A DNA stretch of 51,861 nt from Candidatus Rokuibacteriota bacterium (GTDB taxonomy: Bacteria; Methylomirabilota; Methylomirabilia; Rokubacteriales; CSP1-6): positions 1 through 51,861 of the forward strand of contig JACPIQ010000076.1 in assembly GCA_016188005.1 (NCBI GenBank), read 5' to 3'. Shown here piece after piece: positions 2,388 to 40,759 of the stretch. Positions within the stretch are counted from its first letter, which is position 1; each line of letters starts with the position of its first letter. The position numbers and the translations under genes were made by a program. Under the pieces are notes generated by a model that worked only from the letters and a program-made list of their open reading frames with translations, did no database searches and had not been told where the DNA came from.

Positions 2388-2392
2388 GGTTG

Positions 2393-15716: not shown

Positions 15717-15731
15717 CGGAGAGGTGCAACA

Positions 15732-17105: not shown

Positions 17106-17117
17106 AGGGACCCGCGC

Positions 17118-17426: not shown

Positions 17427-17454
17427 GTGGTGGTGTCCCGCTCGATGCAGTGAG

Positions 17455-17500: not shown

Positions 17501-17516
17501 GGGAGGAGAGGCGCCT

Positions 17517-21250: not shown

Positions 21251-21316
21251 TGCCGGCTGCTCTGGCCACCGGCCCCGTGGGCGTGGTTGCGGCCTTGCAG
21301 GGGGCTTCGAGCTAGC

Positions 21317-22393: not shown

Positions 22394-23310
22394 GCGGGGG
22401 CGTCACCGTCGGGAGCGTGCTCCATCCGGCTTCGGCGAGACGGAGGCGGCGCCCGCCGCTCGAATACCGGCACTGGGCGCTGGTCGGGCCGGCCCTGTTC
22501 CTGTTCCTGGCCTTGCTCGTCTCGCCGATGCTCAACCTGCTGGCCCAGAGCTTCCTCGAGTTTCGCCCGAACGTCGGCATCATCCCACGTCTCACGGTCG
22601 CCAACTACACGACCTTCCTGACGGATCCCTTCTACCTGGGCGTGCTTGCCCGCACCTTGCGGCTGGCGGTCATCGTCGCGGTGGTGTGCGTTGCGGTGGG
22701 CTACCCGGTGGCGTACCAGCTGGCGCGGACGGAGGGACGCCGGCGGGCGTACCTGACCCTCGTGGTCGCGTCGCCGCTCCTCATCAGCGTCATCGTTCGC
22801 ACCTTTGGCTGGCTCGTGATCCTCGGGCCCAATGGCCTGATCAACGCACTCCTCCAGTGGCTGCACCTGATCGACGAGCCGCAGAGATTGCTCTTCACCG
22901 AAGGAGCGGTCGTCGTGGGGCTCGTGCACGTCTTCCTTCCCTTCATGATCCTCTCGATCACGGCGTCGCTGGAGCGCATCGACCCGAGTCTGGAGCGGGC
23001 GGCGCGCAACCTCGGGGCCAGCCCGCGGCGGGCCTTCTGGCGCATCACCCTGCCGCTCAGTCTGCCCGGTGTGCTGGCCGGCACCGTCATCGTCTTCGCG
23101 CTCAGCACCAGCGCCTTCGTGACCCCGGCCATCCTGGGCGGCTCGCAGATCAAGGTCATGTCGGCGCTGATCTACCAGCAGAACCTGCTGCTCCTGAACT
23201 GGCCCTTCGGCGGGGCCATGTCGGTCATCATCCTGTTGATCACCAGTGGGGTCACCCTGGGCTACACGAGGCTGCTGGAGGGTGGCCGATATCGGGTGGT
23301 GTTCCAGTGA
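22390..23310 (+). CDS. ABC transporter permease (PotB-type)
   Basis: 306 residues with six probable membrane helices, first at about 30-55 (ALVGPALFLFLALLVSPML). The cytoplasmic EAA-type loop is ERAARNLGASPRRAFWRITLP. It starts in an ATGA overlap with the ATPase and ends in a GTGA overlap with the second permease. It forms the heteromeric channel of the operon's importer. Confidence 0.93.
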   Translation: MSGGVTVGSVLHPASARRRRRPPLEYRHWALVGPALFLFLALLVSPMLNLLAQSFLEFRPNVGIIPRLTVANYTTFLTDPFYLGVLARTLRLAVIVAVVCVAVGYPVAYQLARTEGRRRAYLTLVVASPLLISVIVRTFGWLVILGPNGLINALLQWLHLIDEPQRLLFTEGAVVVGLVHVFLPFMILSITASLERIDPSLERAARNLGASPRRAFWRITLPLSLPGVLAGTVIVFALSTSAFVTPAILGGSQIKVMSALIYQQNLLLLNWPFGGAMSVIILLITSGVTLGYTRLLEGGRYRVVFQ

Positions 23311-24249: not shown

Positions 24250-25122
24250 ATGAAGATCGGCGTCGTGCTGCCGCAGACCGAGATCGGGAACGACCCGGCC
24301 GCCATCAAGGCGTATGCGGAGGCCGTCGAGGAGATGGGCTTCACGCATATCCTGGTCTTCGACCACGTGCTGGGCGTCAATCCAGATCGCCCGGGCGGGT
24401 GGAAGGGGCCCTACACGTATCGCCACGGTTTCCACGAGCCCTTCGTGCTCTTCGGATTCCTGGCCGCCGCCACGCGCCGGGTCGAGCTGGTGACGGGCAT
24501 CATCATCCTGCCGCAGCGGCAGACCGCGCTGGTCGCCAAGCAGGCCGCGGCCGTCGACGTACTCTCGGGGGGGCGGCTGCGGCTCGGGGTTGCCGTCGGC
24601 TGGAACCCGGTCGAGTTCGAGGCGCTCGGCGAGGATTTCTCGACCCGGGGCCGGCGGATCGAGGAGCAGGTCGAGGTGATGCGTGCGCTCTGGACGCGGG
24701 AGCTGGTGACGTTCGCGGGGAAGCGCCATCGGATCTCCGACGCCGGCCTCAACCCGCTCCCGGTGCAGCGACCGATCCCGGTGTGGATGGGCGGCGAGAG
24801 CGAGGTCGTCCGGCAGCGGATGGCCCGTATCGCCGACGGATGGATGCCCCACTTCCGGCCCGGCGCGCCGGCGCAGGCCACCGTCGATCGGCTCCACGGC
24901 ATGATCCGCGACGCCGGCCGCGACCCGAAGGCGTTCGGGATCGAGGGCCGCATGACGCTGCCCCAGATCCCGCCGGCGGACTGGCGCAAGGAGCTGGAGG
25001 GATGGCGCGCGATGCGCGGGATCAGCCACCTCTGCATCCACACCTCCGGGATGGGGCTGGCGACGCCGGCCGATCACGTCGAGACGCTGCGCCGCTTCCG
25101 GGAGACCGTCGGCCTCCCGTAG
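24250..25122 (+). CDS. LLM-class flavin/F420-dependent oxidoreductase
   Basis: 290 residues, luciferase-like TIM barrel: KIGVVLPQTEIG, GFTHILVFDHVLG, VELVTGIIILPQR, GRLRLGVAVGWNPVEF and PIPVWMGGES are typical. Such enzymes use FMNH2 or F420 for oxidation or mono-oxygenation; which cofactor is not clear. GGGAGGAGG precedes the ATG. It lies 94 nt after the permease on the same strand, so it may be the last gene of the supercluster. Its stop abuts a decayed cyclase fragment on the other strand. Confidence 0.9.
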   Translation: MKIGVVLPQTEIGNDPAAIKAYAEAVEEMGFTHILVFDHVLGVNPDRPGGWKGPYTYRHGFHEPFVLFGFLAAATRRVELVTGIIILPQRQTALVAKQAAAVDVLSGGRLRLGVAVGWNPVEFEALGEDFSTRGRRIEEQVEVMRALWTRELVTFAGKRHRISDAGLNPLPVQRPIPVWMGGESEVVRQRMARIADGWMPHFRPGAPAQATVDRLHGMIRDAGRDPKAFGIEGRMTLPQIPPADWRKELEGWRAMRGISHLCIHTSGMGLATPADHVETLRRFRETVGLP

Positions 25123-25488: not shown

Positions 25489-26148
25489 GTGCGCAGAGGT
25501 GCGACCGACATCGCGCGCGTCCTGGAAGAAGACATCGTGGCCGGGCGGCTCCGGCCGCGCGAGCGGCTGGTGGAGACGGAGCTCGCGCAGCGCTTCCAGA
25601 CGAGCCGAGCGCCGGTGCGCGAGGCGCTGCGGCTCCTCGAATCCGACCGGCTCGTTATCAAGCCGCCGGCCAAGGGCGTGCGCGTCGCCGACCTTTCGCT
25701 CGAAGAGGCCGAGGAGATATTCGTGATTCTCGGGACGCTGCAGGGGCTGGCCGCGAGGCTCGCGGCCCGCAGGATGTCCCCGGCCGACCTGAGACGCCTC
25801 GAGCAGACACTCAGGAAGATGGAGCGACTCGGCACCGCGACGGACCTCCACGGCTATTTCGACCTCAATCTCGTCTTTCACGATCTGATCGGCCGGGCGG
25901 CTCGGAACCAGAAGCTGCAGCGGCTGACCGACAGCCTCGGCAAGCAGGCGAGCCGCTACCGGTTCGCGGCGATGGCGGGCGACGGGCGCGTGGCGAAGTC
26001 CATTCGCGAGCATCGGGCGATCTTGGAGGCGATCCGGGCTGGCAAGGGGCGCCTGGCTTTCAAGATCGCCGAAGAGAGCGCGGCCGGCGCCTTCAAGGCC
26101 CTCCGCCGCGCGCGCACGCGGCCGGATTCCCCCGTCCTTCTCGGCTGA
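25489..26148 (+). CDS. GntR-family regulator (FCD/FadR group)
   Basis: 219 residues. The winged helix-turn-helix spans about 1-70 (LVETELAQRFQTSRAPVREAL, DRLVIKPPAKGVRV) and the C-terminal helical FCD domain spans about 75-205. FCD metal-site residues are partly visible (FDLNLVFHDLIG, REHRAILEAI); the usual last His is not evident. GTG start after GAGGGGAG. It stands first in a rightward operon with amidohydrolase, binding protein, HyuAB and transporter and probably senses a metabolite of that pathway. Confidence 0.92.
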   Translation: MRRGATDIARVLEEDIVAGRLRPRERLVETELAQRFQTSRAPVREALRLLESDRLVIKPPAKGVRVADLSLEEAEEIFVILGTLQGLAARLAARRMSPADLRRLEQTLRKMERLGTATDLHGYFDLNLVFHDLIGRAARNQKLQRLTDSLGKQASRYRFAAMAGDGRVAKSIREHRAILEAIRAGKGRLAFKIAEESAAGAFKALRRARTRPDSPVLLG

Positions 26149-26152
26149 GCCG

Positions 26153-27403
26153 ATGCGGCTCGTTCTGCTTGGGGGGCAGGTGATCACCGGTGACGGCACG
26201 CGATGGGAGCGCGGCGTGGTCGTCGTCGACGGCGAGACCATCTCGGAAATCGCCGACGCGCTGGCCTATCGGGGCCGTCCAGAAGATCGAGTGATCGATC
26301 TCGAAGGACACACGGTGCTGCCCGGGATCATCGACTGCCACGCCCACCTGACGCTCGACGGCGGCCCGAACAACGTGCAGCAGGCGCGCGCGGACACGCG
26401 CCCGTGGGCGACCATCCGCGCCCTCCGGAATGCGGCGGCCGCTCTCTCCGCGGGCGTCACGACGCTCCGGGATGCGGGGGGTGACGGTGAGGTCGTGTTC
26501 GCTGTGCGCGACGCGATCGCGCGCGGGCTCGCGACGGGGCCTCGGGTGGTGGCGTGCGGCCGCCCCGTCTGCATCACGGGTGGTCACGGGTGGTGGATCC
26601 CGGGGCTCGAGGCCGACGGGCCGGCGGCCGTGCGGCAGGGCGTGCGGAGCCTCGTGAAGGGCGGGGCCGACGCGATCAAGCTGATGGCGACGGGCGGGCT
26701 CACGGAGGTGTCGCCGGACGTGGGGATGCGCGCCTCGCAGATGGAGGAGGACGAGCTTGCGGCGGGCGTGGCCGAGGCGCGCAAGGCGGGCCGGCGAACG
26801 CCCGCGCATGCGCACGGCGCGGAAGGGGCCAGGCGGGCGGCGCGGGCGGGGGTCGACTCGATCGACCACGGGATCTTCCTCGACGACGAGGCCTGCGGGA
26901 TCATCGCCGAGCGCGGCGCGTGGTACACGCCGACGTTGCGCGCGACCGCGCCGTCGCCGCTGAAGACCGTCGATGCGGGCTGCCCGGCGCACATCGTCGA
27001 ACGTCATCGGATCGCCCAGGGCCATCACGCCGAAAGCTTCCGGCGTGCACTGCGGGCGGGCGTGCGCATCGGTTACGGAACTGACTCGGGATCCACCGGC
27101 AACACCCACGGCGAGAACCTTGCCGAGCTCGCGTTGATGGTGGACCTCGGGCTGCCTCCGCTGGCGGCGCTCCACTGCGCCACGGCCGGCGCCGCGCGGC
27201 TGCTCGGCCTCGACGATCGGCTCGGCACCCTCGCGCCGGGCAAGCAGGCCGATCTCATCGTCGCCCGCGGGGACGTGCTGGCCGACATCCGTTCCCTGGC
27301 CGATCCGCACACCGTACGCGCGGTCGTTCGCGGCGGCGAGATCGTCGTCGCGAAGGACGGGCTCGTTGCCAGGAACACCCTCACCGCCAAGGACTGCCAC
27401 TGA
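26153..27403 (+). CDS. Amidohydrolase (imidazolonepropionase/prolidase-like)
   Basis: 416 residues. Metal ligands of the amidohydrolase barrel are visible: DCHAHL, the lysine in DAIKLMATGG, AHAHG, SIDHGIFL and YGTDSGS, with the small N- and C-terminal beta-sandwich (TVLPGIIDCHAH; LAPGKQADLIV). The group cleaves amide bonds in small cyclic or dipeptide-like compounds; the substrate is not predictable. It begins 4 nt after the GntR stop and its stop overlaps an ATG upstream of the binding protein, so it is co-transcribed. Confidence 0.9.
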   Translation: MRLVLLGGQVITGDGTRWERGVVVVDGETISEIADALAYRGRPEDRVIDLEGHTVLPGIIDCHAHLTLDGGPNNVQQARADTRPWATIRALRNAAAALSAGVTTLRDAGGDGEVVFAVRDAIARGLATGPRVVACGRPVCITGGHGWWIPGLEADGPAAVRQGVRSLVKGGADAIKLMATGGLTEVSPDVGMRASQMEEDELAAGVAEARKAGRRTPAHAHGAEGARRAARAGVDSIDHGIFLDDEACGIIAERGAWYTPTLRATAPSPLKTVDAGCPAHIVERHRIAQGHHAESFRRALRAGVRIGYGTDSGSTGNTHGENLAELALMVDLGLPPLAALHCATAGAARLLGLDDRLGTLAPGKQADLIVARGDVLADIRSLADPHTVRAVVRGGEIVVAKDGLVARNTLTAKDCH

Positions 27404-27417
27404 TGAGGAGGACGCAG

Positions 27418-28410
27418 ATGAGACGCTCGCTTGGGATCGCAACGCTTGCCGCGCTGTTGCTGGTCACGGCCGCCGGCGTTACTCGTGCGGAGTCGATCAG
27501 GATCGGCTGCCCGGCCGCCCTGCCGCTGTACTACCTGCCAGCCAGCGTGGCCGACTCTCAGGGATTCTTCCGCAAGGAAGGGCTGACCGTCGAGATGATC
27601 AACCTGGTCGGCTCCGACGCCGCGAAGGCGCTCCTGGCCAAGAGCGTCGACGTCAGCTGCAACTCGCTCGATCATGCAATCAAGGCGGCCGCCCAGGGCC
27701 AGCAGCTGAAGATGATCGTGGCGTTCCAGCGGACGCCGGCGATGGCGCTGCTCGTCCTGAACAAGCACCGCGACCAGATCAAGTCCGTCCGCGACCTCAA
27801 AGGCCGCGCCGTCGGCATCTCGGTGGTGGGGGCGAGCGCGCACCTGATGCTGCGGTACGTCCTCGACCGGGCCGGGCTCGGCGAAAGGGACGTCCGGCTC
27901 GTCTCCGTGCCGGGCCCCGCATTCATCGCGGCGATGAAGCAGGGCCAGATCGACGCGGGCATGAACTTCGAGCCGTTCGTCACGCGCTTGATCCGCGAGG
28001 GCGTGGCGTTCCCGCTGCTCGACCTGCGCCCCGTGAAAGCCGCCGAGGCCGTGATGGGTGGCCCGGAGTTCGTCCACACCGGGATGCTGGCGCGGGCGGA
28101 GACGATCCGCGACCGGCCGGCGACGATCCAGAAGGTGGTCAACGCGATCGTCCGCGCCCACCGGTGGATCCAGGAGCACTCGCCAGCCGACATCGCGAAC
28201 GCCCTCCCCGACCTCAAGGACAAGGAGGACTTCATCACCGCGATGGGCACGCTCAAGGATGCCTACTACCCGGCGGGGGTGCCAACGGAGGCGGGCGTGA
28301 TCAAGACCATCGGGTTCCACCGGGCGGTCGGCACCTTGACGGCCGATCAGCGGCTCGACCCGCGCGCCCTGCTCGACACGACGTTCGTGCTCAAGGCGTC
28401 GGCGCCGTAG
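27418..28410 (+). CDS. NMT1/TauA-type ABC substrate-binding protein
   Basis: 330 residues, with a signal peptide (RRSLGIATLAALLLVTAAGVT, cleaved near RAES). The body follows the NMT1 pattern: RIGCPAALPLYYLPASVADSQ, FRKEGLTVEMINL, LKGRAVGISVVGAS and AFIAAMKQGQIDAGM. The chosen ATG follows GAGGAGG at good spacing; another ATG 15 nt upstream overlaps the previous stop. It should serve the SsuB/SsuC-type ATPase and permease encoded 3.8 kb further on in the operon. Confidence 0.92.
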   Translation: MRRSLGIATLAALLLVTAAGVTRAESIRIGCPAALPLYYLPASVADSQGFFRKEGLTVEMINLVGSDAAKALLAKSVDVSCNSLDHAIKAAAQGQQLKMIVAFQRTPAMALLVLNKHRDQIKSVRDLKGRAVGISVVGASAHLMLRYVLDRAGLGERDVRLVSVPGPAFIAAMKQGQIDAGMNFEPFVTRLIREGVAFPLLDLRPVKAAEAVMGGPEFVHTGMLARAETIRDRPATIQKVVNAIVRAHRWIQEHSPADIANALPDLKDKEDFITAMGTLKDAYYPAGVPTEAGVIKTIGFHRAVGTLTADQRLDPRALLDTTFVLKASAP

Positions 28411-28441: not shown

Positions 28442-30529
28442 GTGGCCAAGGCAAAGCGGCTGTTGCTCGGCATCGACATCGGAGGGACGTTCACGGACCT
28501 CGTCCTGCTGGACCCCGCATCATGCGAGATGCGGGTGGAAAAGGTGCTCACCACCCCGGAGGCGATCGAGCGCGGCGCGCTCGACGGCTTCCGCAAGCTC
28601 GTCGCCGGGGGCATGGCGCCAGCCGCGATCGGGCGCGTGATCCACGCGACCACCGTCGCCACGAACGCGGTCATCGAGGGGAAGGGGGCCTGCACGGGCC
28701 TCATTACCACGCGTGGCTTTCGGGACGTCATCGAGATCGGCCGGGAGATCCGTTACGATCTCTATGACCTCGCCATCGCCTTCCCGCCGCCCCTCGTGCC
28801 CCGCGCGCGCCGCATGGAGGTCGACGAGCGCCTCGCAGGGGACGGCTCGGTGCTCCGGCCGCTCGACGGCGCCGCGGTGGAAGCGGCGGCGGCCGGGCTG
28901 CTCGCTGACGGCGTGACCTCGGTCGCGATCGGGTTCCTGCACTCCTACGCCAACGGCGCCCACGAGGCGGACGCGGCGAAGGCGATCGCCGCCCGGCATC
29001 CCGACCTGTCGCTGAGTCTGTCGTCCGAAGTGGCCCCGGAGATCCGCGAATACGAGCGGTTCGCCACCACGGTGGTCGACGCCTACATCAAGCCGCTCGT
29101 CAGGGGCTACCTGGAGCAGCTCGAACGGACGCTCCGGCAGGAGCGCTTCAAGGAACGGCTGTTCATCATGCTCTCGAACGGCGGCATCGCCGCGCCCGCC
29201 GTCGCCGGCGCGACGCCGGTGAAGATGCTCGAGTCCGGACCGGCGGCCGGGACGCTGGCGGCGGCCTTCTACAGCCGGCAGCTGCGGACGGACAACCTGC
29301 TCGCCTTCGACATGGGCGGTACGACGGCGAAGATCTCGCTGGTGGAAGACGGCCAGATCGAGCGGACGCGCGAGTTCGAGGTGGCGCGCGTGCACCGCTT
29401 CAAGCGCGGCAGCGGGTACCCACTTCGCACCTCCGCCATCGAGCTGACGGAGATCGGCGCGGGCGGGGGGAGCATCGCCCGGAGGGATCCGCTGGGACTC
29501 CTGAAGGTCGGGCCGGAGAGCGCGGGCGCGGCGCCGGGGCCCGCGTGCTACGGCCGGGGGGGCACGGAGCCGACGGTGACGGACGCGTTGGTCGTCCTCG
29601 GATACCTGAACGCCGACTATTTCCTCGGCGGCTCGATGGCGCTCGATCGGAAGGCAGCCGAGAAGACCATTGACGCGCTCGCCGAGAAGCTCGGCATGAG
29701 CCCCGTCGACACGGCGGCCGGCATCTACGACGTCATCAACGAGAAGATGGCCGCCGCGATCCGGATGCACCTGGCGGAGCAGGGGCGGGATCCCCGGCTC
29801 TTCTCCCTGTTCGCGTTCGGCGGCGCCGGCCCGCTCCACGCCTCCGAGCTGGCCCGCCGGCTCGGAATCCGGCGCGTGATCTGCCCGCTTGGTGCCGGTG
29901 CCACCGCCGCCTTCGGCGCGCTCGTCGCGCCTCCCGCGATGGACCTCGTCCGTTCCTACCAGACGGACTTGGCGACGGCCGACTGGGCGCGGGTCAACCG
30001 GCTCTTCGAGCAGATGGAAGCGGAAGGGCTCGCGATGCTTGGCGAGGCGGGCGTGCCCCGGCAGGCCGTGCGCTTCGACCGTACCGTCGACGTCCGGTAC
30101 GCCTTCCAGGGGTACGACCTTTCGGTCCCCACGCCGGCGGGGCGCCTCTCGGCGGCGGTCACGGGGCGCCTGCGGGCCTCGTTCGAAAAGGCGCATGCCG
30201 AACGGTACGGACGCCGCTACTCGGACGTCCCGGTGGAGGGGGTGAACTGGCGCGTGTGGGCGTGCGCCCCGGCCCTCTCCCTCCGGACACGGCGCGCGGC
30301 GCCGGCGAGCGCGACGCCACCGCTCAAGGGCAAGCGCCGCGTGTACCTGCCCCAGGGGCGGAAGTTCGTGGAGGCGCCCGTCTACGACCGCTACCTGATG
30401 CCCGCCGGACGCGCGCTGCGCGGCCCCGCCATCCTGGAGGAGCGCGAGTCGACCGTGGTCGTTGGATCGCGATGCACGTTCCGGATCGATCCGCAGCAGA
30501 ACCTCGTCATGGACCTGGAGGAGGCGTAG
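28442..30529 (+). CDS. hyuA: Hydantoinase A/oxoprolinase subunit (HyuA), third copy
   Basis: 695 residues with LGIDIGGTFTDLVLLDP at residues 9-25, AFDMGGTTAKISLVEDG and GAGGGSIARRDPLG. GTG start with GGGGAT upstream. It forms the ATP-binding half of the HyuAB enzyme with the next gene (2-nt gap). The neighbouring dialkylglycine-decarboxylase-like gene hints that the substrate gives a 2,2-disubstituted amino acid (inference). Confidence 0.94.
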   Translation: MAKAKRLLLGIDIGGTFTDLVLLDPASCEMRVEKVLTTPEAIERGALDGFRKLVAGGMAPAAIGRVIHATTVATNAVIEGKGACTGLITTRGFRDVIEIGREIRYDLYDLAIAFPPPLVPRARRMEVDERLAGDGSVLRPLDGAAVEAAAAGLLADGVTSVAIGFLHSYANGAHEADAAKAIAARHPDLSLSLSSEVAPEIREYERFATTVVDAYIKPLVRGYLEQLERTLRQERFKERLFIMLSNGGIAAPAVAGATPVKMLESGPAAGTLAAAFYSRQLRTDNLLAFDMGGTTAKISLVEDGQIERTREFEVARVHRFKRGSGYPLRTSAIELTEIGAGGGSIARRDPLGLLKVGPESAGAAPGPACYGRGGTEPTVTDALVVLGYLNADYFLGGSMALDRKAAEKTIDALAEKLGMSPVDTAAGIYDVINEKMAAAIRMHLAEQGRDPRLFSLFAFGGAGPLHASELARRLGIRRVICPLGAGATAAFGALVAPPAMDLVRSYQTDLATADWARVNRLFEQMEAEGLAMLGEAGVPRQAVRFDRTVDVRYAFQGYDLSVPTPAGRLSAAVTGRLRASFEKAHAERYGRRYSDVPVEGVNWRVWACAPALSLRTRRAAPASATPPLKGKRRVYLPQGRKFVEAPVYDRYLMPAGRALRGPAILEERESTVVVGSRCTFRIDPQQNLVMDLEEA

Positions 30530-30531
30530 CG

Positions 30532-32183
30532 ATGGGCCGCCGCTTCGATCCGATCACGACCGAGATCCTCTGGCAGCGGCTCATCGCGCTCGTGGACGAG
30601 GCGTCGATCAACCTCGTGCGCAGCTCGTTCTCGACCGCGGTGCGCGAAGCGAACGACTACGCTTGCGTGTTGATGGACGCGCGCGGCGATGCCGTGGCGC
30701 AGGCGAGCGTGAGCGTGCCCTCGTTCATCTGCACGCTGCCCATCTCCGTGAAGCATTTCCTGCGTCGCTTCCCGCCCGCGTCGCTCTCGCCCGGCGACGT
30801 GCTGATCTCGAACGACCCGTGGATGTGCAATGGCCATCTTCCCGACGTCAACCTGGCCGCGCCAATCTTCATGGGCCGCCGCCTCGTCGGCTTCGCCGGC
30901 GCGGGCGCCCACTGGCCGGACGTTGGGGGCAACCAGTACTCGGCGGAGTCGCGTTCCGTGTTCGAGGAGGGGTTGCGAATCCCGATCTGCAAGATCGTGG
31001 AGCGCGGGCGCGAGAACCCGGTCGTGATCGACTTCATCCGCAACAACGTCAACGTCCCCGACCGTGTGCTCGGCGACATGCGGGCGCAGCTCGCGGCCCT
31101 GCGCGCGATGAGCGATGGGCTGGTACGGCTGGTCCGCGAGTATCGCTTGGCCGACTTCGGGCCGCTCGCGGCGCACATCCAGCAGCTCGCCGAGGCGGAG
31201 ATGCGCCGGGAGATTCGGAAGATCCCCAACGGGCGCTACCAGGGGTCGGTCGAGACGGACGGCTTCGACGCCCCGCTCCGCCTCGTGGCCACCGTCGCGG
31301 TCGAGGGGGCGAAGTTGATGGTCGACTACACGGGGACGTCGCCCCAGACCGAGCGCGGGCTCAACAGCGTGCCCAACTTCACCTACGCATACACGGCCTA
31401 CACCCTCAAGTGCCTGCTGGCGCCGCATACGCCGAACAACGAGGGGAGCTTCCGTCCCATCTCCGTCACCGCCCCGCTCGGCTCGGTGCTGAACCCGCGC
31501 TTCCCGGCGCCCGTGAACGGCCGCACGATGTCCGGCCATTTCCTGCACGCGCCGATCTTCAAGGCGCTCGCCGCTGTGCTGCCCGACCGTGTGATGGGCG
31601 AGAGCGGGGGGTGTCCGATCTGGGGACCCATGTGGGCGGGCACGCACCGGGGGGAACGCTTCACGCACCTCCATTCGGCGAACGGTGGCCTCGGGGCCTC
31701 GGTCTCGCGCGACGGCGTGTCCTGTCTGCCGTTCCCGAGCAACGTGCCCAACACGCCCGTCGAGATCACCGAAGCGGCGGCGCCGCTTCTGGTCGAATGC
31801 AAGGCGCTGCGCCAGGACTCCGCGGGGGCCGGGGAGTACCGCGGCGGACTCGGCCAGGTAGTGGCCATCCGCGTCACCGCCGCGCAGCCGGTCACGGCCG
31901 CCCTCCGCTGTGACCGCACGCGCCGGCCGGCGGAGGGCCTCCACGGCGGGCAGCCGGGCGCGACGGGCCGGGTGCTGATCAACGGGGCGGTGAATGCGGA
32001 CCCGAAGGCGAAGATGCGGCTCCAGCCCGGCGACGTGCTGACGATGGAGACGCCGGGCGGCGGCGGATTCGGCGATCCCCGGAAGCGCGACCGCGGCGCG
32101 GTCGAGGCGGATCTCCGGAACGGGCTGATCTCCGAGTCGGCGGCGCGCGACATCTACGGCCTCGCCGCGAGTCCCGGGGACCC

Positions 32184-32187
<4 letters not shown>
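30532..32187 (+). CDS. hyuB: Hydantoinase B/oxoprolinase subunit (HyuB), third copy
   Basis: 551 residues. Family segments: LISNDPWMCNGHLPDVN (about residue 93), DYTGTSPQTERGLNS, DSAGAGEYRGGLGQ and ETPGGGGFGDPRKRD. GGAGGAGG precedes the ATG. The stop overlaps the ATPase start (GTGA), so the transporter is translationally coupled to the enzyme. Confidence 0.94.
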
Positions 32188-33001
<814 letters not shown>

Positions 33002-33005
<4 letters not shown>

Positions 33006-33853
33006 CGCCGAGCCGCGACGAGGCGATCATCGAGCGCGAGGCGGCTGAGGCGCGTCCCGTGTCCGCCCCGCTGGCCGAGAGCTCGGGCGACGAGGACGCC
33101 CCCGCGCCGCGACTCTGGGCGGCCCGGCTCGTGCTCGCCACCGTGATCCTCGGACTCTGGGAGGCCATCGGCGGGCGGTGGGTCGATCTCTTCTGGATGA
33201 GTAAGCCCTCGCTCATCATCAAGGACCTGATCGTGCAGGTGCGGACGGGCGAGATCGTCGTTCACCTCGCCGCGACGCTCGAGGAGATGGCCATCGGACT
33301 CGTCGTCGGCGGCGGCGTCGGGGTCTTCCTCGGCCTCGTGCTCGGGCGCCGTCGGGTGCTCGCCGACGTCCTCAACCCGTTCATCATCGCCCTCTACAGC
33401 CTGCCGAAGGTCGCCCTGGCGCCCCTGTTCATCCTGTGGTTCGGGATCGACCTGCTGTCGAAGGTCATTCTCGTAGCTGTCATCGTCGCCTTCCTCGTGT
33501 TCTTCAACACCTATTCCGGCGTGCGCGAGGTGAATCCGAACCTGCTCAACGTGCTCCGCGTGATGGGTGCCACCAACCAGGAGATCTTCCGGCAGGTGAT
33601 CCTGCCATCGGCCGGCTCCTGGATCCTGACCGGATTCCGCATCGCCGTGCCCTACGCGCTGATCGGCGCCGTCGTCGGCGAGCTGATGGCATCGAGCAAG
33701 GGCATCGGCTACCGGCTGACGTACGCCGCCCAGATGTTCGACACCACCCGTGTCTTCACGGCGCTCCTCGTTCTCATGCTCGTGGCCGCCGTGCTCAACG
33801 AGGTCGTGACCCGCATCGAGGCGTGGGCGCTGCGCTGGAAAGCGAAGGGATAA
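33002..33853 (+). CDS. ABC transporter permease (SsuC/TauC-type)
   Basis: 283 residues. A hydrophilic N-terminus of about 35 residues is followed by about six membrane helices. The EAA loop reads LNVLRVMGATNQEIFRQVIL. GTG start within the ATPase stop. It forms the homodimeric channel expected for this importer type. Confidence 0.92.
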
Positions 33854-33871
33854 GCCCCAGAGGGGATCGCG

Positions 33872-35173
33872 ATGGACGACCGACAGCTTCGCCAGTGGGC
33901 GCAGGACCATCTCATCCGCACGGGCCTTCTCATCGATGTCGTCCCGCCGTGGGAAGGGCCCATCTTCGCCCGCGCGCAGGGCAGCGTCATCGTGGACACG
34001 GCCGGCAAGGAGTATCTTGACTTCAACTCGGGCCAAATGTGCTCGGCCCTCGGCCACAACAACCCGCGCGTCGTGAAGGCCATCCAGCAGGCGGCGACCA
34101 CGCTGACCCACGCCAGCTCCGTCTTCTACAACGTGCCGCAGATCGAGCTCGCGAAACGTCTCGCGGACCTCGTCGACCGGCCGCTCGCCAAGTCGATGTT
34201 CATCCAGTCGGGGGCGGACTCGACCGAGGGTGCCATCCTCCTCGCCCGGCGTTACACCGGCAGGACCGCCATCGGCGCCTTCCACCTGGCCTTCCACGGC
34301 TACAGCGACGTGACGCGGGCGATGAGCTTCTGCGCGACCGCGCCGGGCTACGGCCCCGTCTTGCCCGGCATCTACGCCTTTCCGACGCCGTACTGTTACC
34401 GGTGCCGCCAGCGACCGGCCGACGGCGGTTGCTGCATGACGTCGCTCACCGTCGGTCTCGAGGTCCTCGATCGTCAGTGCGGCGGCGAGCTAGCCGGCAT
34501 CATCGTCGAACCGCTCGTCAGCGCGGGCGGTGTCATCGATCTCCCGCCCGGCTTTCTCGGCGCCCTACGGCGCGAGTGCGACAAGCGCGGCGCGCTCCTC
34601 ATCCTCGATGAGGCGCAGACTGGGCTCGGCAAGCTGGGGACGATGTTCGCCTACCAGGAGGCAGGCGTGATACCGGATATCATGACGCTCTCGAAGCACC
34701 TGGGTGGTGGCATCGCGGTGAGCGCCGTCGTGACCACGGCGGCGATCGAGGACCGCGCGGCCGCGGGAGGGATGATCTTCGGCCACTCGCATTCTGGAGA
34801 CCCGTTGGCGTGCGCGGCTGCGGTCGCGAGCATCGAGGAGATCGTGGCCGAGAACCTGCCGGAGAAGGCGCGCCACATCGGCCAGCAATGGCAGTCGCTG
34901 ATGGGCGAGCTTCAGAAGCAGCACGAGGTCATCGGCGACATCCGCGGCCGCGGTCTCCTGCAGGGCGTCGAGCTCGTCCGCGACCGGGAGACCCGGGTAC
35001 CGGCGACCCGCGAGACGACGAAGGTCTTCCAGGAGTGCGTGCGCACGGGCCTCCTCTTCTCGGTCCGCGGCCCGCATCGCAACGTCCTCCGCTTCGTCCC
35101 GCCGTTCACGACGACGCCCGAGCAGCTGGCGCGCGCCGCGGAGATGCTCGACGCCGCGATCCGCAAGGCGTGA
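33872..35173 (+). CDS. Class III PLP enzyme close to 2,2-dialkylglycine decarboxylase
   Basis: 433 residues, usual for the fold. The PLP lysine is Lys275 in TLSKHLGGG, with the DEAQTG motif before it. Compared from memory with dialkylglycine decarboxylase (DGD), the decarboxylase-associated Gln is present (Gln55 in NSGQM), as are the Ser in EPLVSAGG (about 217) and the late Arg in LRFVPP. DGD's Trp138 and Met141 are replaced by Phe141 and Tyr144. So it may decarboxylate-transaminate a 2,2-disubstituted amino acid of different size, or be an ordinary omega-aminotransferase. A Cys cluster (CYRCRQRPADGGCC) is unusual. It is last in the HyuAB/transporter operon, 18 nt after the permease. Confidence 0.85.
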   Translation: MDDRQLRQWAQDHLIRTGLLIDVVPPWEGPIFARAQGSVIVDTAGKEYLDFNSGQMCSALGHNNPRVVKAIQQAATTLTHASSVFYNVPQIELAKRLADLVDRPLAKSMFIQSGADSTEGAILLARRYTGRTAIGAFHLAFHGYSDVTRAMSFCATAPGYGPVLPGIYAFPTPYCYRCRQRPADGGCCMTSLTVGLEVLDRQCGGELAGIIVEPLVSAGGVIDLPPGFLGALRRECDKRGALLILDEAQTGLGKLGTMFAYQEAGVIPDIMTLSKHLGGGIAVSAVVTTAAIEDRAAAGGMIFGHSHSGDPLACAAAVASIEEIVAENLPEKARHIGQQWQSLMGELQKQHEVIGDIRGRGLLQGVELVRDRETRVPATRETTKVFQECVRTGLLFSVRGPHRNVLRFVPPFTTTPEQLARAAEMLDAAIRKA

Positions 35174-35544: not shown

Positions 35545-35997
35545 TCAGCGGCGTGCAGAGGTCCGGGACCGCGACGCTCGTCGGCCGCCTCGCCCGGTCG
35601 CCGGACGCTCCAGCTCCACTCTGGCCACGGGAAAGCACTCCATCCAGGCCGCCAGTCCCCCCATGAACCGGGGGAGGCCAGCGGCGAGGGCCAGCACTTC
35701 CAGGACCTCGAGGACCTCCACCTTCGTGGCGCCATGCCGCTTCGCCACCTCGATGTGGGCGGCGATGTGCCCCTGGCCCGAGCCGAGGGCGGTGTGGACG
35801 GCGACCGAGATCAGCTCTTTCGTCTTGCGGTCGAGCCGCCGGTTGTTCGTGTAGGAGATCGCGAGCAGGTCGTTCACCGCCTTCATGAACGGCAGGTCCT
35901 CGGCCACCAGCACCTTGTGGTAGTCGAGCACGTAGCCGCGCCGCCGCGCCATCTCCTGCAGGTAGGCGCGCTGGCGGCCGACGTCACTCCGGCTCAT
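35545..35997 (-). CDS. Carboxymuconolactone decarboxylase-like protein, no CxxC
   Basis: 150 residues. The core LISVAVHTALGSGQGHIAAHIEVAKRHG fits the CMD/AhpD helical fold, but the CxxC of AhpD-like redox members is replaced by GQGH, so it is of the decarboxylase-like, non-redox type; the later histidine is kept. The reaction is unknown. Its ATG overlaps the crotonase stop (ATGA) and it ends the leftward operon. The C-terminal 25 residues are Arg-rich and probably disordered. Confidence 0.85.
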   Translation of the reverse strand: MSRSDVGRQRAYLQEMARRRGYVLDYHKVLVAEDLPFMKAVNDLLAISYTNNRRLDRKTKELISVAVHTALGSGQGHIAAHIEVAKRHGATKVEVLEVLEVLALAAGLPRFMGGLAAWMECFPVARVELERPATGRGGRRASRSRTSARR

Positions 35998-36767
35998 CGG
36001 TGGGAGTCCAACGTCGCCAGCGTTTCGAGGCTCAGGAAATAGCCCAGCCCCTCGTCGATCGCCTTCCGCAACGGGTGGATCAGGACGAGCCGCGTGTAGC
36101 GCAGCAAGAGGTCGGGTTTCGCCGCGAGCTGCCGGGCCAGCTCCCAGGCCCGCGGCAACAACGCGCGCCGGGGCATGACCTCGGCCACCAGCCCGAGGTC
36201 CTTCGCCTCCGCGGCCGACAGCACCTGCCCGGTCAGCATGAGGTACCGCGCTCGGTTCAATCCCAGCAGCATCGTATAGACGACGTTGATCCCGTCGCCC
36301 GGCACGTGCCCGCCGAGCTGGAAATGCGCGGTGTCCTCGAACGTCGCGTCTTCGGCCGCGAGGACGATGTCGCACATCAACGCGAGTTCCGCGTGCCGCT
36401 TGGCCGGCCCGTTCACCACCGCGATCATCGGGATCTCGATGTCGAGGAGCCTCGTCACCAGCCGCCGGGCGTTCCAGTGGACCCGGTCCAGCCCCGCCGG
36501 CGTCAGCTCGACCCCGCCCTCTGCATACACCGTCCGGTGGGGATCGGACCGCGGGCCGATGAACTCCTCCCCGGTGCCGGTCAGGATGACGAGCCGGTTG
36601 CCCCGATCCGCTCCGACCGCGCCGAGCGCCTCGACCAGCTGCGCCTGCGGTCGCAGGCCCCACCGCAACGGGCCGCCGTCCGTGTGGAGCGTCATCTGGA
36701 GGGTGCCGTCGCGCCGCTCCATCAGGATGTGGTCATACTGCTGCGAGTACTCGTCGAAGGTGGACAT
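35994..36767 (-). CDS. 6-oxocamphor-hydrolase-like crotonase (beta-diketone C-C hydrolase candidate)
   Basis: 257 residues, crotonase fold. It lines up over most of its length with what I recall of 6-oxocamphor hydrolase: VILTGTGEEF, PMIAVVNGP, CDIVLAAEDATFEDTAHF, VPGDGINVV, LLPRAWELARQLAAKP. His125, His148 and Asp158 match the hydrolase's catalytic His122, His145 and Asp154 in spacing (one extra residue before the Asp). Such enzymes cleave a C-C bond of cyclic beta-diketones by retro-Claisen reaction without CoA. It follows the importer genes in the same leftward operon. A plain enoyl-CoA hydratase is less likely, as the usual Glu pair is not seen. Confidence 0.85.
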   Translation of the reverse strand: MSTFDEYSQQYDHILMERRDGTLQMTLHTDGGPLRWGLRPQAQLVEALGAVGADRGNRLVILTGTGEEFIGPRSDPHRTVYAEGGVELTPAGLDRVHWNARRLVTRLLDIEIPMIAVVNGPAKRHAELALMCDIVLAAEDATFEDTAHFQLGGHVPGDGINVVYTMLLGLNRARYLMLTGQVLSAAEAKDLGLVAEVMPRRALLPRAWELARQLAAKPDLLLRYTRLVLIHPLRKAIDEGLGYFLSLETLATLDSHR

Positions 36768-36808
36768 GGTTTCCTCCGTGGCTGGATCGCGAGGGCCCGC
36801 GCCGCCGT

Positions 36809-37912
36809 TCAGCGCGCGTCGTCCGCGATCAGGCAGATGTGCTCGGGGTCGACCGACACGAACAACGTCTCGCCGACCTCGGCGGAGAAGTCGGCCGGGC
36901 TCTGGGCCTGGAGGACGCGGGACCCCGCGCGCAGCTGGACGATGGTGAGGTTGCCCTGGAACAGGACGCCGTCGACCTGGCAGCGCAGCACGTTGGCGGC
37001 CGCGGGGCGCGTGCGGTCGAGGCGGAGGTGCTCGGGGCGGATGCAGAGGAGGACCGGCCCCCCGTCGCCTCCCTCCCCGGGGACCGGGCGGCCCAGGCGC
37101 AGGGGCCCCTCGGCGACGTCCGCGGCGAGCCGCCCCACCCGGCCGCCGTCGGCGGCGACCGCAACCGTCGCCTCGAGGACGTTCGCGGCGCCGATGAACT
37201 GGGCCACGAACCGGTCAACGGGCCGCGCGTAGAGCTCCCGCGGCCGGCCCTCCTGGCGGATCCGCCCGGCGCTCATGACGATGACGCGGTCGGAGATCGT
37301 GAGGGCCTCGATCTGGTCGTGGGTCACGTAGATCGCCGTGATCCCGACCCGGTGGAAGAGGCGGCGCAGCTCGTCGCGCATCCGCTCGCGCAGCTTGGCG
37401 TCGAGGTTGCTGAGCGGTTCATCGAGCAGTAGGAGCTTCGGCTGATAGGCCAGGGCCCGGGCCAGGGCCACCCGTTGTTGCTGGCCGCCCGAGAGCTCCG
37501 CGGGGTGCCGTCCCCGGAGCTCGTCGAGCTCCACCAGGCGGAGCGCCTCCGCCGTGCGCTCGGCAGCCTCCCGCCGCGGGAGCTTCCTCGCCTTGAGGCC
37601 GTAGGCCACGTTGTCGAACACGGTCATGTGGGGCCAGAGAGCATAGGATTGAAACACCATGCCCAGGCCCCGCCGCTCGGGAAGGGTGAACAGCCCGCGC
37701 GCGACCGACGTGACCGTCTCCCCGTCGATCCGGATCTCGCCGGCGTCGGGCGCCTCCAGGCCGGCGATGCACCGCATCGTCGTCGTCTTGCCGCACCCGC
37801 TGGGGCCCAGGAGCGTCACCAGCTCGCCCTTGTCGACGCTGAACGTCACCTCCGCCACCGCCAGCGCCGGCCCGAACCGCTTCGCGAGCCCGACCACGTC
37901 GAGGTACGGCAC
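36809..37912 (-). CDS. ABC transporter ATPase (iron/polyamine-type)
   Basis: 367 residues with Walker A GPSGCGKTT, signature LSGGQQQR, Walker B LLLLDEP, YVTHDQ and a TOBE domain (ANVLEATV onward). GTG start in a TAGTG overlap with the permease stop. It powers the fused permease just upstream; the binding protein is two genes upstream. The frame is open to 39328, but that part only shadows the permease gene. Confidence 0.93.
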   Translation of the reverse strand: MPYLDVVGLAKRFGPALAVAEVTFSVDKGELVTLLGPSGCGKTTTMRCIAGLEAPDAGEIRIDGETVTSVARGLFTLPERRGLGMVFQSYALWPHMTVFDNVAYGLKARKLPRREAAERTAEALRLVELDELRGRHPAELSGGQQQRVALARALAYQPKLLLLDEPLSNLDAKLRERMRDELRRLFHRVGITAIYVTHDQIEALTISDRVIVMSAGRIRQEGRPRELYARPVDRFVAQFIGAANVLEATVAVAADGGRVGRLAADVAEGPLRLGRPVPGEGGDGGPVLLCIRPEHLRLDRTRPAAANVLRCQVDGVLFQGNLTIVQLRAGSRVLQAQSPADFSAEVGETLFVSVDPEHICLIADDAR

Positions 37913-39582
37913 TAAAAGGCTACGCCCCGGCCGCCCGTCAGCTTCATGAAGACGTAGGTGGCGGCCAGGATGATCACCGCCTGGACGAGGGCCAGCGCCG
38001 CCACCGCCGGCGACGGCTCGAGCTCCGAGAAGATGTAGATCGCCACCGACATCACCACCGACTGATGGGCGTAGAGCAGGCTCGCGATGTCGAATTCCCG
38101 CATGAAGATGATGAACACGATCAGCCACGCCGAGACGATCCCGGGCTTGAGCAGCGGATAGAGGACGTCGCGGAGCATCCGGAAGAAGGAGGCGCCGCCG
38201 ACCCGCGCGCTCTCCTCGAGCTCCGGATCGATGGCGAGCAGGACGGAGGAGATAGGGCGGAGGGCGAAGACCTCGAACCGGGTCAGCAGGCCGGCCACGA
38301 TGATCCAGACCGTCCCGTAGATCGGGGTGTGGATGTACGTCAGCAGCACGCCGACCCCGATCACGACGCCGCCGAAGGCGATCGGCATCGTGACGACGAA
38401 GTCGAGCGGGCCGCCCAGCCGGCTGCGCGAGCGATGGATGGCGTGGGCCAGCACGATCCCGATCCCCACCGCCAGGGTGGCCCCCACCGTCGAGATGAGC
38501 AGGGTGTTGACGATCGCCCGCCGGACGACCTCCGACGCGAACACCGCGCGGTAGTGGTGCGCCGTCAGCAGGCTGGGGTCGAAGCGGCCGGTCCACACCC
38601 GCGACGCCGAGACGAGGACGAGCGTCGCGATCGGCAGCACCAGGGTGAGCGTGAGGAAGCCGAGACAGAACGCGAGGGCCGCCCACCGCCAGCGCCCGAG
38701 CGGGATCACCCGCGGCGCGTAGCTCTTGCCCGTGATCGTGACGAACCGCTGGCCCCGGGTGGCGCGTTGCTGGCCGAGCCACCCGGCCAGCGTGAGGGTG
38801 ACGAGGACCAGGCTCACCGCCGACGCCTTGCCGTAGTCGGGCCGGAACGCGAGGATCTCGAAGATCTGGGTCGAGAGCGTCTTGATGCGGACGGGCGCCC
38901 CCAGGAAGAGCGGGACGGCCAGGGACCCGGCCGCGGTCACGAAGATCAGGAGCAGCGCCGAGACGATGCCCGGCGCGGCCAGAGGCAAAGTGATCCGCCG
39001 GGCGGTCTGGAGGACTCCGAAGCCGGCCACCCGGGAGGATTCCTCCAGCCGAGGATCCATGCCGGCGAGCGTGGCCTTGGCGAACAGGTACATGATCGGG
39101 GTAAGGAAGAGCCCCTCGACGAAGGCCATGCCGCCCACGGTGTGGATGTCGAGCGGGGGCCGCGTGAGCCCCAGCCCGCCCACCAGGAGGCCGTTGAGGA
39201 TCCCGATCTTCGGCGAGGCGAGGAACTTCCAGGCGATCGCGCCCTGGAACGACGAGATGAAGAAGGGAAGCAGGTAGAGCCGGTCGAGCGGCCGGCGCGC
39301 CGGCATGTCGGTGCGGGCGGTCAGCCAAGCCAGGGGGATCCCGAACAGGGCGGCCACCCCCGTGGCCCCGAGGGTGAAGGCCAGCGTGGTGAGCACGGCC
39401 TCCCGGATGCGGTCGTCGGTCAGGACCTCCACGTAGTTCTCGACGGAGTAGACCGTCCTGCCGCTCGGATCCTCGAGCGAGAGGCTGCCGTGGATCAGCG
39501 TGGCGACCGGGCCCAGGACCATCGCCGACGCGGCGACCCCGATGACGACCTTGATGGCCTTCTCGGGCGTCAGCCAGACCAT
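37912..39582 (-). CDS. ABC transporter permease with two fused permease domains
   Basis: 556 residues, about twelve membrane helices in two homologous halves, as in FbpB/AfuB-type importers. Each half carries an EAA loop: LEESSRVAGFGVLQTARRIT and LEESARVGGASFFRMLRDVL. It moves the solute delivered by the Tat-exported binding protein upstream. No clear ribosome site decides the start; the ATG used gives a short hydrophilic N-terminus before the first helix. Confidence 0.92.
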   Translation of the reverse strand: MVWLTPEKAIKVVIGVAASAMVLGPVATLIHGSLSLEDPSGRTVYSVENYVEVLTDDRIREAVLTTLAFTLGATGVAALFGIPLAWLTARTDMPARRPLDRLYLLPFFISSFQGAIAWKFLASPKIGILNGLLVGGLGLTRPPLDIHTVGGMAFVEGLFLTPIMYLFAKATLAGMDPRLEESSRVAGFGVLQTARRITLPLAAPGIVSALLLIFVTAAGSLAVPLFLGAPVRIKTLSTQIFEILAFRPDYGKASAVSLVLVTLTLAGWLGQQRATRGQRFVTITGKSYAPRVIPLGRWRWAALAFCLGFLTLTLVLPIATLVLVSASRVWTGRFDPSLLTAHHYRAVFASEVVRRAIVNTLLISTVGATLAVGIGIVLAHAIHRSRSRLGGPLDFVVTMPIAFGGVVIGVGVLLTYIHTPIYGTVWIIVAGLLTRFEVFALRPISSVLLAIDPELEESARVGGASFFRMLRDVLYPLLKPGIVSAWLIVFIIFMREFDIASLLYAHQSVVMSVAIYIFSELEPSPAVAALALVQAVIILAATYVFMKLTGGRGVAF

Positions 39583-39616
39583 GGCGCCGCCGCCGGCGCG
39601 ACCGGGCGCACCGGCC

Positions 39617-40708
39617 CTAGAGACCGAAGGTCCTGATGAAGGTCTTCCGGAACTGGTCGAGCTCCTTCTGGGCGACCTTCCGGTAGTCGAACGGGATCAG
39701 GTTCAGCTTCGTGATCAGGGGGAGCAGCCGCTCGTTCGGGCTCTCGACGTCCGGCCGGAAGGAGAGATAGCCGGACTCGCCCATGAGGTACTGCTGCCCT
39801 TCCTTCGAGGCGTGGAACAGCCTGACCAGCCGGGCCGCGTTGGGGTGGGGCGCGCTCTTGAAGCTGAAGAAGCCGTCGACCACCGGCACGATCCCGTCCT
39901 TCGGATAGGCGACGCGCAGGGCAGCTTTGTTCTGGGTGACCGCCCGGTAGGCGGAGAAGGAGGTGCTCACGACGATCGGGTACTCGCCGGACACCGCCGC
40001 CTCGACCAGCGTCTCGGAGCTGACGATGAACCCCGGCTTGATCCGGGCCAGGTCCTCGAAGTACTTCGCGGACAGCTTGGTGCGGAGCACGTAGAAGTAC
40101 TGAGTCCACCCCGCCGACTTCGACGCATCGCCGATGGCCACCCGGCCGACGTGCTTCGGGTTCAGCAGGTCGCCCCAGCCCTCGAGGGTGTCCTGGACCT
40201 TCTGCGGGTTCCAGATGATGACCGGCACCCACATCGTCGGCACCCAGTAGCCCGGCTCGGCGTGGATCGTCGCGTAGGCCTTCTCCTCGGGGTTCGCCCA
40301 TTCCTGCAGGAGCCCCTTGGCCTTGAGCCCGAAGAGCCAGGGCCCCATGGGGAAGCGGACGAAGTCCGCCGCGAGCTTGCCAGCCTTGAGCTCGGTCTCC
40401 AACCGCCCCTGGAGATCGGCGGTCTTGTAGACCGCCTCTTCGACCGCGAAGCTCTCGGGCAGCCCGCAGTAGGCGCGGAAGTGCCGGCCGAACTTCTCGC
40501 CCAGGGAGGCCGGCGCGTAGATCACGACCTTGCCCTCCGCCCGGCTCCCCTCGATGAGCCGTGCCACTTCCTGCTTCACCGGCCCGGGCTGGAGGCGAGC
40601 GAGCGCCGGCGGCTCGGCCGCGCCCGCGGTCCGCGGCCGGACGGCGTCGGTCAGGACGTGCACCGATGTCGCACCCAGCCCGACCCTGAGGAACGTTCTC
40701 CGGTTCAT
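39617..40708 (-). CDS. Tat-exported ABC substrate-binding protein (iron/polyamine-type)
   Basis: 363 residues. Twin-arginine signal NRRTFLR (residues 2-8), then a short hydrophobic stretch. The rest is a family 1 solute-binding fold (EGKVVIYAPASLGEKF, AADFVRFPMGPW, VPTMWVPVIIWN, GFFSFKSAPHPNAARLV). The ATG follows AGGAG; a GTG 6 nt upstream sits on that site. It is between the hydantoinase-like gene and the permease in the operon. Confidence 0.92.
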   Translation of the reverse strand: MNRRTFLRVGLGATSVHVLTDAVRPRTAGAAEPPALARLQPGPVKQEVARLIEGSRAEGKVVIYAPASLGEKFGRHFRAYCGLPESFAVEEAVYKTADLQGRLETELKAGKLAADFVRFPMGPWLFGLKAKGLLQEWANPEEKAYATIHAEPGYWVPTMWVPVIIWNPQKVQDTLEGWGDLLNPKHVGRVAIGDASKSAGWTQYFYVLRTKLSAKYFEDLARIKPGFIVSSETLVEAAVSGEYPIVVSTSFSAYRAVTQNKAALRVAYPKDGIVPVVDGFFSFKSAPHPNAARLVRLFHASKEGQQYLMGESGYLSFRPDVESPNERLLPLITKLNLIPFDYRKVAQKELDQFRKTFIRTFGL

Positions 40709-40759
40709 GACCACTCCTCTCTGGATCTCACGCGATGACGACCCAGGCCTTCGTTCCCC

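What the first reader, a model, noticed from the sequence alone, without database searches (positions are those of the whole stretch)
28442..35173. HyuAB, importer and dialkylglycine-decarboxylase-like enzyme in one operon: possible 5,5-dialkylhydantoin route
Seen: HyuA, HyuB, ATPase, permease and a DGD-like PLP enzyme are consecutive and tightly spaced. The enzyme keeps Gln55 and other DGD residues but has Trp138 to Phe and Met141 to Tyr changes. Known: DGD converts 2,2-dialkylglycines such as 2-aminoisobutyrate to CO2 and a ketone with amino transfer. Inference: hydrolysis of a 5,5-disubstituted hydantoin or similar cyclic amide would give just such an amino acid, so this operon may import and fully degrade such compounds, with the pocket changes fitting a different side chain.
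Basis: partly seen in the sequence, partly recalled or inferred. Interest (0 to 1): 0.62.

Follow-up and report, generated by a model that had tools for sequence, protein, structure and literature searches.

The report
Cyclic-amide operon with DGD-like enzyme
A bacterial operon carries an importer, an ATP-driven ring-opening amidase and a pyridoxal enzyme from an uncharacterised sister family of dialkylglycine decarboxylase, so it probably breaks a cyclic or amide-bound compound down to an unusual alpha-amino acid, but nothing shows that compound to be a 5,5-dialkylhydantoin.

Summary
28442-35173 encodes HyuA, HyuB, an ABC ATPase, a permease and a class III PLP enzyme, nearly abutting. The operon is larger than reported: gntR/FCD (25489), a COG1228-type amidohydrolase (26153) and the importer's binding protein (27403) precede hyuA without a break. 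The PLP enzyme is not an omega-aminotransferase. It belongs to an apparently uncharacterised family (82 members gathered) that is sister to dialkylglycine decarboxylase (DGD). The family keeps Gln52, Lys272 and Arg406 in 82/82 members and lacks the Glu211 of GABA aminotransferase. It always replaces Trp138 by Phe and Ser215 by Ala, so these are family traits, not tuning in this operon; only Met141-to-Tyr varies. Two close relatives, this genome's second copy and orthologues of that copy sit in operons with polar amino acid importers, which points to a free alpha-amino acid as substrate. HyuAB meets published two-gene hydantoinase/lactamase criteria, not ketone-carboxylase ones. HyuAB next to the PLP gene recurs in only three of 85 other loci, one of them with a D-hydantoinase. 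The general scheme (amide precursor to alpha-amino acid to PLP enzyme) is likely. The 5,5-dialkylhydantoin substrate is a guess: the operon has no known carbamoylase, and decarboxylation is untested.

The parts
25489..26148 (+). GntR/FCD-family regulator, probable local regulator of the operon
   Evidence: Pfam FCD and GntR; 43-46% identical to the GntR/FCD gene beside the second family copy in this genome and in two relatives
26153..27403 (+).
   Evidence: Pfam Amidohydro_1; PDB 2qs8, 3mtw, 4c5y homologues; NCBIfam Xaa-Pro dipeptidase model 290 bits, below its 500-bit cut-off
27403..28410 (+).
   Evidence: Pfam NMT1 2e-29; SsuA family below cut-off
28442..30529 (+). HyuA: ATP-binding subunit of an ATP-dependent amidohydrolase
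   Evidence: Pfam Hydant_A_N, Hydantoinase_A; ATP motifs DIGGTFTDL, DMGGT, GAAPGP present; caprolactamase alpha 503 bits against acetophenone carboxylase 278/190
30532..32187 (+). HyuB: metal-dependent ring-opening subunit, 551 aa
   Evidence: Pfam Hydantoinase_B 4e-148; aligned to CapB (6yra_B) with metal ligands D41, H99, D102, H124 kept; start codon
32184..33005 (+). ABC importer ATPase (nitrate/taurine/sulfonate type)
33002..33853 (+). ABC importer permease (SsuC/TauC/SaoP-like)
33872..35173 (+). Class III PLP enzyme of the family sister to dialkylglycine decarboxylase; Q55, F141, Y144, A218, K275, R399, R407

Best explanation
An eight-gene operon (gntR, amidohydrolase, binding protein, hyuA, hyuB, ABC ATPase, permease, PLP enzyme) imports a small cyclic or amide-linked nitrogen compound. 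HyuAB opens the amide using ATP. The COG1228-type amidohydrolase may cleave a further amide bond to free an alpha-amino acid. The DGD-sister PLP enzyme then acts on that amino acid, most likely as a decarboxylating transaminase or alpha-aminotransferase, with its carboxylate held by Arg407 or placed against Gln55 for loss as CO2. Shown: gene content, spacing, family placement and active-site residues. Inferred: order of steps, substrate class and reaction type. The precise precursor (hydantoin, lactam, diketopiperazine or other) cannot be named from sequence.
For: Eight genes with overlaps or gaps of at most 31 bp. PLP family sister to DGD, SH-aLRT 97 for the family and 100 for family plus DGD; nearest PDB sequence and fold are DGD. 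Gln52, Lys272 and Arg406 invariant in 82/82; the GABA-aminotransferase Glu211 position is Ala in 82/82, so Arg407 is free for an alpha-carboxylate (the equivalences I50-Q52 and E211-S215 are also visible in PDB titles 1szs and 1szk). Relatives lie in operons with polar amino acid importers: L008, L011, the own second copy L091, L125, L126, L127, once with an alanine racemase (L008). GntR/FCD beside the PLP gene recurs (window, L025, L091, L125, L126). HyuAB satisfies the Hyd criteria of PMC5214803: two genes, no gamma subunit, HyuB 551 aa. PLP gene directly abutting HyuAB recurs in L025, L047 and L076; L047 also has a D-hydantoinase above its cut-off.
Against: The operon has no twin: in the order (60 genomes) only this genome has the window subfamily's PLP gene, and none of the other 58 genomes searched has a close amidohydrolase. 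Most family members (78 of 85 loci) have no HyuAB within reach. Host genomes hold 7-25 HyuA copies, so chance adjacency is not negligible. L025's HyuA is not especially close to the window's. No activity is known for any family member.
Confidence: 0.5

Rival explanations
1. One reading: HyuAB hydrolyses a 5,5-dialkylhydantoin, a carbamoylase frees the 2,2-dialkylglycine, and the PLP enzyme converts it to CO2 and a ketone with amino transfer to pyruvate.
For: DGD-sister enzyme with Gln52, Lys272 and Arg406; HyuAB of amidohydrolase type; a D-hydantoinase lies beside related PLP genes in L047 and L008 and at 40760-42130 in this window; carbamoylase-type genes exist elsewhere in the genome.
Against: No classical carbamoylase in the operon; nothing specific to a quaternary carbon; the window D-hydantoinase is on the other strand in another cluster; one full-text search for dimethylhydantoin degradation by hydantoinase found nothing; pocket changes are family-wide.
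Confidence: 0.12
2. The PLP enzyme is an ordinary alpha-amino acid transaminase (or racemase/epimerase) that does not decarboxylate; the operon simply salvages a common amino acid, possibly a D-amino acid, from a cyclic or N-blocked form.
For: W138F and S215A alter two of the six published DGD subsite residues in every member; relatives sit with polar amino acid importers and once with an alanine racemase; the fold also resembles amino acid racemases.
Against: Gln52, the DGD-specific position (Ile in GABA aminotransferase), is invariant in 82/82 and shared only with the DGD clade in this tree.
Confidence: 0.3
3. HyuAB opens a lactam to an omega-amino acid, which a class III omega-aminotransferase then deaminates, as in caprolactam degradation.
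For: Nearest NCBIfam models are caprolactamase subunits; caprolactamase opens a lactam in this way (PMC8453981).
Against: Family lacks the Glu211-type residue (Ala in 82/82); DGD, not omega-aminotransferases, is the nearest relative.
Confidence: 0.07
4. HyuAB is a ketone carboxylase acting after the PLP enzyme: dialkylglycine to ketone, ketone to beta-keto acid.
For: Carboxylases are homologous; DGD would release acetone from 2-aminoisobutyrate; HyuA has Lys at the Apc-alpha' Lys281 position of the proposed bicarbonate site.
Against: No gamma subunit, two-gene layout, HyuB 551 aa against about 720 in acetone carboxylase, model scores far better for lactamase; the Lys motif is common to a whole HyuA branch.
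Confidence: 0.05
5. The PLP gene is at the end of an amide-catabolic operon by chance of gene gain and serves an unrelated pathway.
For: HyuA genes are very numerous in this and host genomes (14 here; 7-25 elsewhere); co-location within 10 kb is not significant at the own-genome density (P 0.056); no conserved twin operon.
Against: 18-bp gap and shared strand; three other adjacent cases (P 0.002 at own-genome density, weaker at host densities); recurring GntR/FCD partner.
Confidence: 0.15

Closest known systems
2,2-dialkylglycine decarboxylase (DGD, Burkholderia cepacia; PDB 1dka, 1dgd, 1z3z)
   Same: Nearest relative by sequence and fold; Q52, M53, K272, R406, D243, Q246 kept; sister clade
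   Different: About 40% identity; W138F, S215A, V396R, T302H and T273H in all 82 members of the new family; Y301 lost; four-cysteine motif in most members; activity unknown
Caprolactamase CapAB (Pseudomonas jessenii; PDB 6yra)
   Same: Two-subunit ATP-dependent amide hydrolase; ATP motifs and D/H/D/H metal ligands kept
   Different: Below the caprolactamase model cut-offs (503 and 202 against 1000 bits); HyuA has Lys where CapA has Asp302
N-methylhydantoinase (PDB 7hk5) and Pseudomonas NS671 HyuAB
   Same: Same family; 7hk5 is the best PDB match of both subunits
   Different: Separate branch in the HyuA tree (7hk5; NS671 itself was not compared); the classic second step (N-carbamoyl hydrolase) is not in the operon
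COG1228 dipeptidases/carboxypeptidases (PDB 2qs8, 3mtw) and ochratoxinase (4c5y)
   Same: Homologous to the operon's amidohydrolase along most of its length
   Different: Substrate unknown; below the Xaa-Pro dipeptidase cut-off

Membership tests
Dialkylglycine decarboxylase | Groups with DGD rather than omega-aminotransferases | tested here: met
   Sister clade; family plus DGD supported 100; PDB E-values 1e-93 against 3e-65
Dialkylglycine decarboxylase | All six published subsite residues Q52, W138, M141, S215, K272, R406 (PMC10169451) | tested here: not met
   Q52, K272, R406 kept; W138F, M141Y, S215A changed. One DGD-clade row also has S215A and one has W138Y
Dialkylglycine decarboxylase | Lies inside the DGD clade itself | tested here: not met
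   Separate clade, SH-aLRT 97
Dialkylglycine decarboxylase | Decarboxylation of 2-aminoisobutyrate coupled to pyruvate transamination | not testable with these tools
   needs enzyme assay
Omega-aminotransferase (GABA/ornithine type) | Glu at position 211 (E. coli GabT) pairing with the carboxylate Arg | tested here: not met
   Ala in 82/82
ATP-dependent hydantoinase/lactamase (Hyd) | Two-gene hydAB, no gamma subunit, short beta subunit (PMC5214803) | tested here: met
   HyuA 695 aa, HyuB 551 aa, no third subunit
ATP-dependent hydantoinase/lactamase (Hyd) | ATP motifs and D/E-H-D-H metal site | tested here: met
Acetone/acetophenone carboxylase | Gamma subunit and about 720-aa (Acx) or Apc-type subunit set | tested here: not met
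Hydantoin utilisation pathway | N-carbamoyl amino acid hydrolase in the cluster | tested here: not met
   No such Pfam or NCBIfam match among the operon genes; two TIGR01879 genes lie elsewhere in the genome
Hydantoin utilisation pathway | Hydrolysis of 5-substituted hydantoins | not testable with these tools
   needs enzyme assay

The most novel reading that the evidence does not exclude
A second, uncharacterised family of decarboxylating transaminases, sister to DGD and present in marine, sponge-associated and soil bacteria of several phyla (Pseudomonadota, SAR202-type Chloroflexota, SAR324, Nitrospinota, Armatimonadota), degrades quaternary or otherwise unusual alpha-amino acids. In this operon it is coupled to an ATP-dependent ring-opening amidase that releases the amino acid from a cyclic precursor.
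Probability: 0.3. Interest if true: 0.62.

Novelty: new variant of a known kind. Interest (0 to 1): 0.42.

Why it matters
DGD is a rare class III PLP enzyme that binds the alpha-amino group and decarboxylates. A large sister family that keeps its key Gln and Arg but always changes Trp138 and Ser215 is a natural test of which residues decide decarboxylation against transamination. If members act on 2-aminoisobutyrate or isovaline, they would give a bacterial sink for quaternary amino acids (for example from fungal peptaibols) in sea and soil, and an operon linking it to amide ring opening would point to its natural precursors.

Tried and rejected
Omega-aminotransferase identity: rejected by tree, PDB ranking and missing Glu211. 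HyuAB as ketone carboxylase: rejected on gene layout, lengths and model scores. A conserved HyuAB-PLP cassette: not found; HyuA beside relatives is not specially close to the window's, and the operon has no twin in the order. A 2-hydroxyisobutyryl-CoA mutase clue (mutase genes upstream of PLP relatives L077, L078, L081): the active-site motif reads RQYAGF, as in methylmalonyl-CoA mutase by my recollection, so dropped. Reading pocket geometry from the AlphaFold model: the loop with F141-Y144 has pLDDT about 51 and no coordinates were available. Promoters and terminators: no informative hits. Plasmid records: closest HyuA 47%, no close amidohydrolase. Literature on dimethylhydantoin with hydantoinase: none in the library. 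Placing more genomes around L076: the tool gave only that one genome.
Full report
WHAT IS THERE. The five reported genes are present at 28442-35173 on the + strand with the stated identities. The run is longer: gntR/FCD 25489-26148, an amidohydrolase 26153-27403 and an NMT1/SsuA-like binding protein 27403-28410 precede hyuA with a 4-bp gap, a 1-bp overlap and a 31-bp gap. Then come hyuA 28442-30529, hyuB 30532-32187, ATPase 32184-33005, permease 33002-33853 and the PLP gene 33872-35173. Third-position GC supports all eight as coding.

THE PLP ENZYME. phmmer against the PDB ranks DGD first (1dka, 1e-93); the next family, GABA aminotransferase, is at 3e-65. An AlphaFold model (mean pLDDT 88.9) has DGD entries as its four best Foldseek matches, TM about 0.93. 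In a maximum-likelihood tree of 71 proteins the window enzyme and its relatives (55 rows) form one clade (SH-aLRT 97), sister to a DGD clade of seven rows that holds 1dka, and the two together are supported at 100. E. coli GabT and ArgD fall outside. The tree is a short search, and several outgroup rows are long, so only the deep grouping should be trusted.

ACTIVE SITE. The published DGD subsite residues are Q52, W138, M141, S215, K272 and R406 (PMC10169451). In 82 aligned family members Q52, K272 and R406 are invariant, W138 is always Phe and S215 is always Ala; M141 varies (Met 36, Leu 25, Tyr 19) and Y301 is lost. V396 is Arg, T302 His and T273 His in all 82. So most of the 'pocket changes' are family traits and cannot be read as fitting a substrate peculiar to this operon. 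The position of GABA aminotransferase Glu211, which by established knowledge pairs with the carboxylate arginine in omega-aminotransferases, is Ala in 82/82, so the arginine should be free for an alpha-carboxylate (inference). Gln52 retention favours, but does not prove, decarboxylation. In this window's numbering the residues are Q55, F141, Y144, A218, K275, R399 and R407.

CONTEXT OF RELATIVES. Eighty relatives were fetched from genome contigs, with further ones from this phylum. The second copy in this genome (55% identical) and its orthologues in two relatives lie in an operon GntR/FCD, PLP enzyme, ATPase, SBP_bac_3 binding protein and permease. L008 and L011 have SBP_bac_3 importers directly downstream, and L008 then has an alanine racemase. 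L127 has an SBP_bac_3 importer. The L060-L068 group and L128 have peptide-type SBP_bac_5 importers; L047 and L076 have branched-chain-type importers. An alpha-amino acid substrate fits all of these (inference).

LINK TO HYUAB. Only seven of 85 other loci have HyuA or HyuB in the stretch examined; at this genome's HyuA density 3.4 genes would be expected (P 0.056). Direct same-strand adjacency occurs in three (L025, L047, L076; P 0.002 at the same density). The host genomes are HyuA-rich (17-25 copies in those three), so the true P is weaker; about 0.03 by my arithmetic if all genomes were as rich as the richest. L047 carries, after PLP-hyuA-hyuB, a dihydropyrimidinase/D-hydantoinase above its curated cut-off; L008 has one within 7 kb, and this window has one at 40760-42130 on the other strand. 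This is the best evidence in favour of hydantoin-like precursors, and it is thin. L025's HyuA fragment is no closer to the window's than to HyuAs without a PLP neighbour.

HYUAB TYPE. Subunit number, lengths and lack of a gamma subunit place HyuAB with the hydantoinase/lactamase branch by the criteria of PMC5214803. ATP motifs and the D-H-D-H metal ligands described for caprolactamase (PMC8453981) are kept. Model scores favour caprolactamase over carboxylases, but all lie far below the curated cut-offs, so the substrate is open. HyuA belongs to a branch with DMGGTTAK, which places a Lys where CapA, N-methylhydantoinase and ApcC have Asp and where Apc-alpha' has Lys281; its meaning is unknown.

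THE MISSING STEP. Hydantoin opening gives an N-carbamoyl amino acid (established knowledge). No known carbamoylase is in the operon; two TIGR01879 proteins lie on other contigs. The operon's amidohydrolase belongs to the group of Xaa-Pro dipeptidase, arginine carboxypeptidase and ochratoxinase, which cleave amide bonds to a C-terminal amino acid (established knowledge). It would fit a dipeptide from a diketopiperazine, or an N-acyl amino acid, at least as well as an N-carbamoyl one. This is why the precursor is left open here.

DISTRIBUTION. Among 60 genomes of the order only this one has the window subfamily's PLP gene, and none of the other 58 genomes searched has a close amidohydrolase. The operon is therefore an isolated, probably acquired or assembled unit. 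Base composition does not differ from the surroundings.

VERDICT. Observation confirmed and extended; interpretation partly supported. A likely amide-to-alpha-amino-acid catabolic operon ends in a member of an uncharacterised DGD-sister family. The 5,5-dialkylhydantoin reading remains possible (about 0.12) but unproven.

Noticed in passing
window 33872-35173, residues 175-191 of the PLP enzyme; L001-L082: A cysteine motif, absent from Burkholderia DGD, occurs in 64 of 82 family members in three spacings: CxxC..CxxxC 31, a shifted form 28, CxxC..CC 5 (including the window). It is missing in 18. It looks like a metal site that moved or was lost.
   Followed up: partly
window 28442-30529, HyuA motif DMGGTTAK; also the HyuAs at 17517 and 291: Lys at the position of Apc-alpha' Lys281 (proposed bicarbonate site), where CapA, N-methylhydantoinase and ApcC have Asp; typical of a whole HyuA branch without a characterised member among the references used.
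   Followed up: partly
window 14658-23310: A second HyuAB cluster with SBP_bac_8 binding protein, AtuA-domain protein, HyuA, HyuB, ABC ATPase and permease.
   Followed up: no
window 35994-42130, - strand: D-hydantoinase/dihydropyrimidinase (above TIGR02033 cut-off) with binding protein, fused permease, ABC ATPase and a crotonase-family gene.
   Followed up: partly
window 282-3226, - strand: A third HyuA gene next to an IclR-family regulator; the genome holds 14 HyuA copies.
   Followed up: no
L077, L078, L081: Methylmalonyl-CoA mutase-like large subunit upstream of the PLP relative in Chloroflexota; in the L060-L068 group a biotin-dependent acyl-CoA carboxylase-like gene and a peptide importer precede it.
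   Followed up: partly
L047 3810-8000 and L076 1531-4943: A different class III aminotransferase, with Met at the DGD Q52 position, also sits beside a HyuA/HyuB gene in both loci, so class III aminotransferase plus HyuAB recurs beyond this family.
   Followed up: no
window 24250-25122: F420-type LLM-class oxidoreductase (TIGR03619, above cut-off) 366 bp upstream of gntR; relation to the operon unknown.
   Followed up: no
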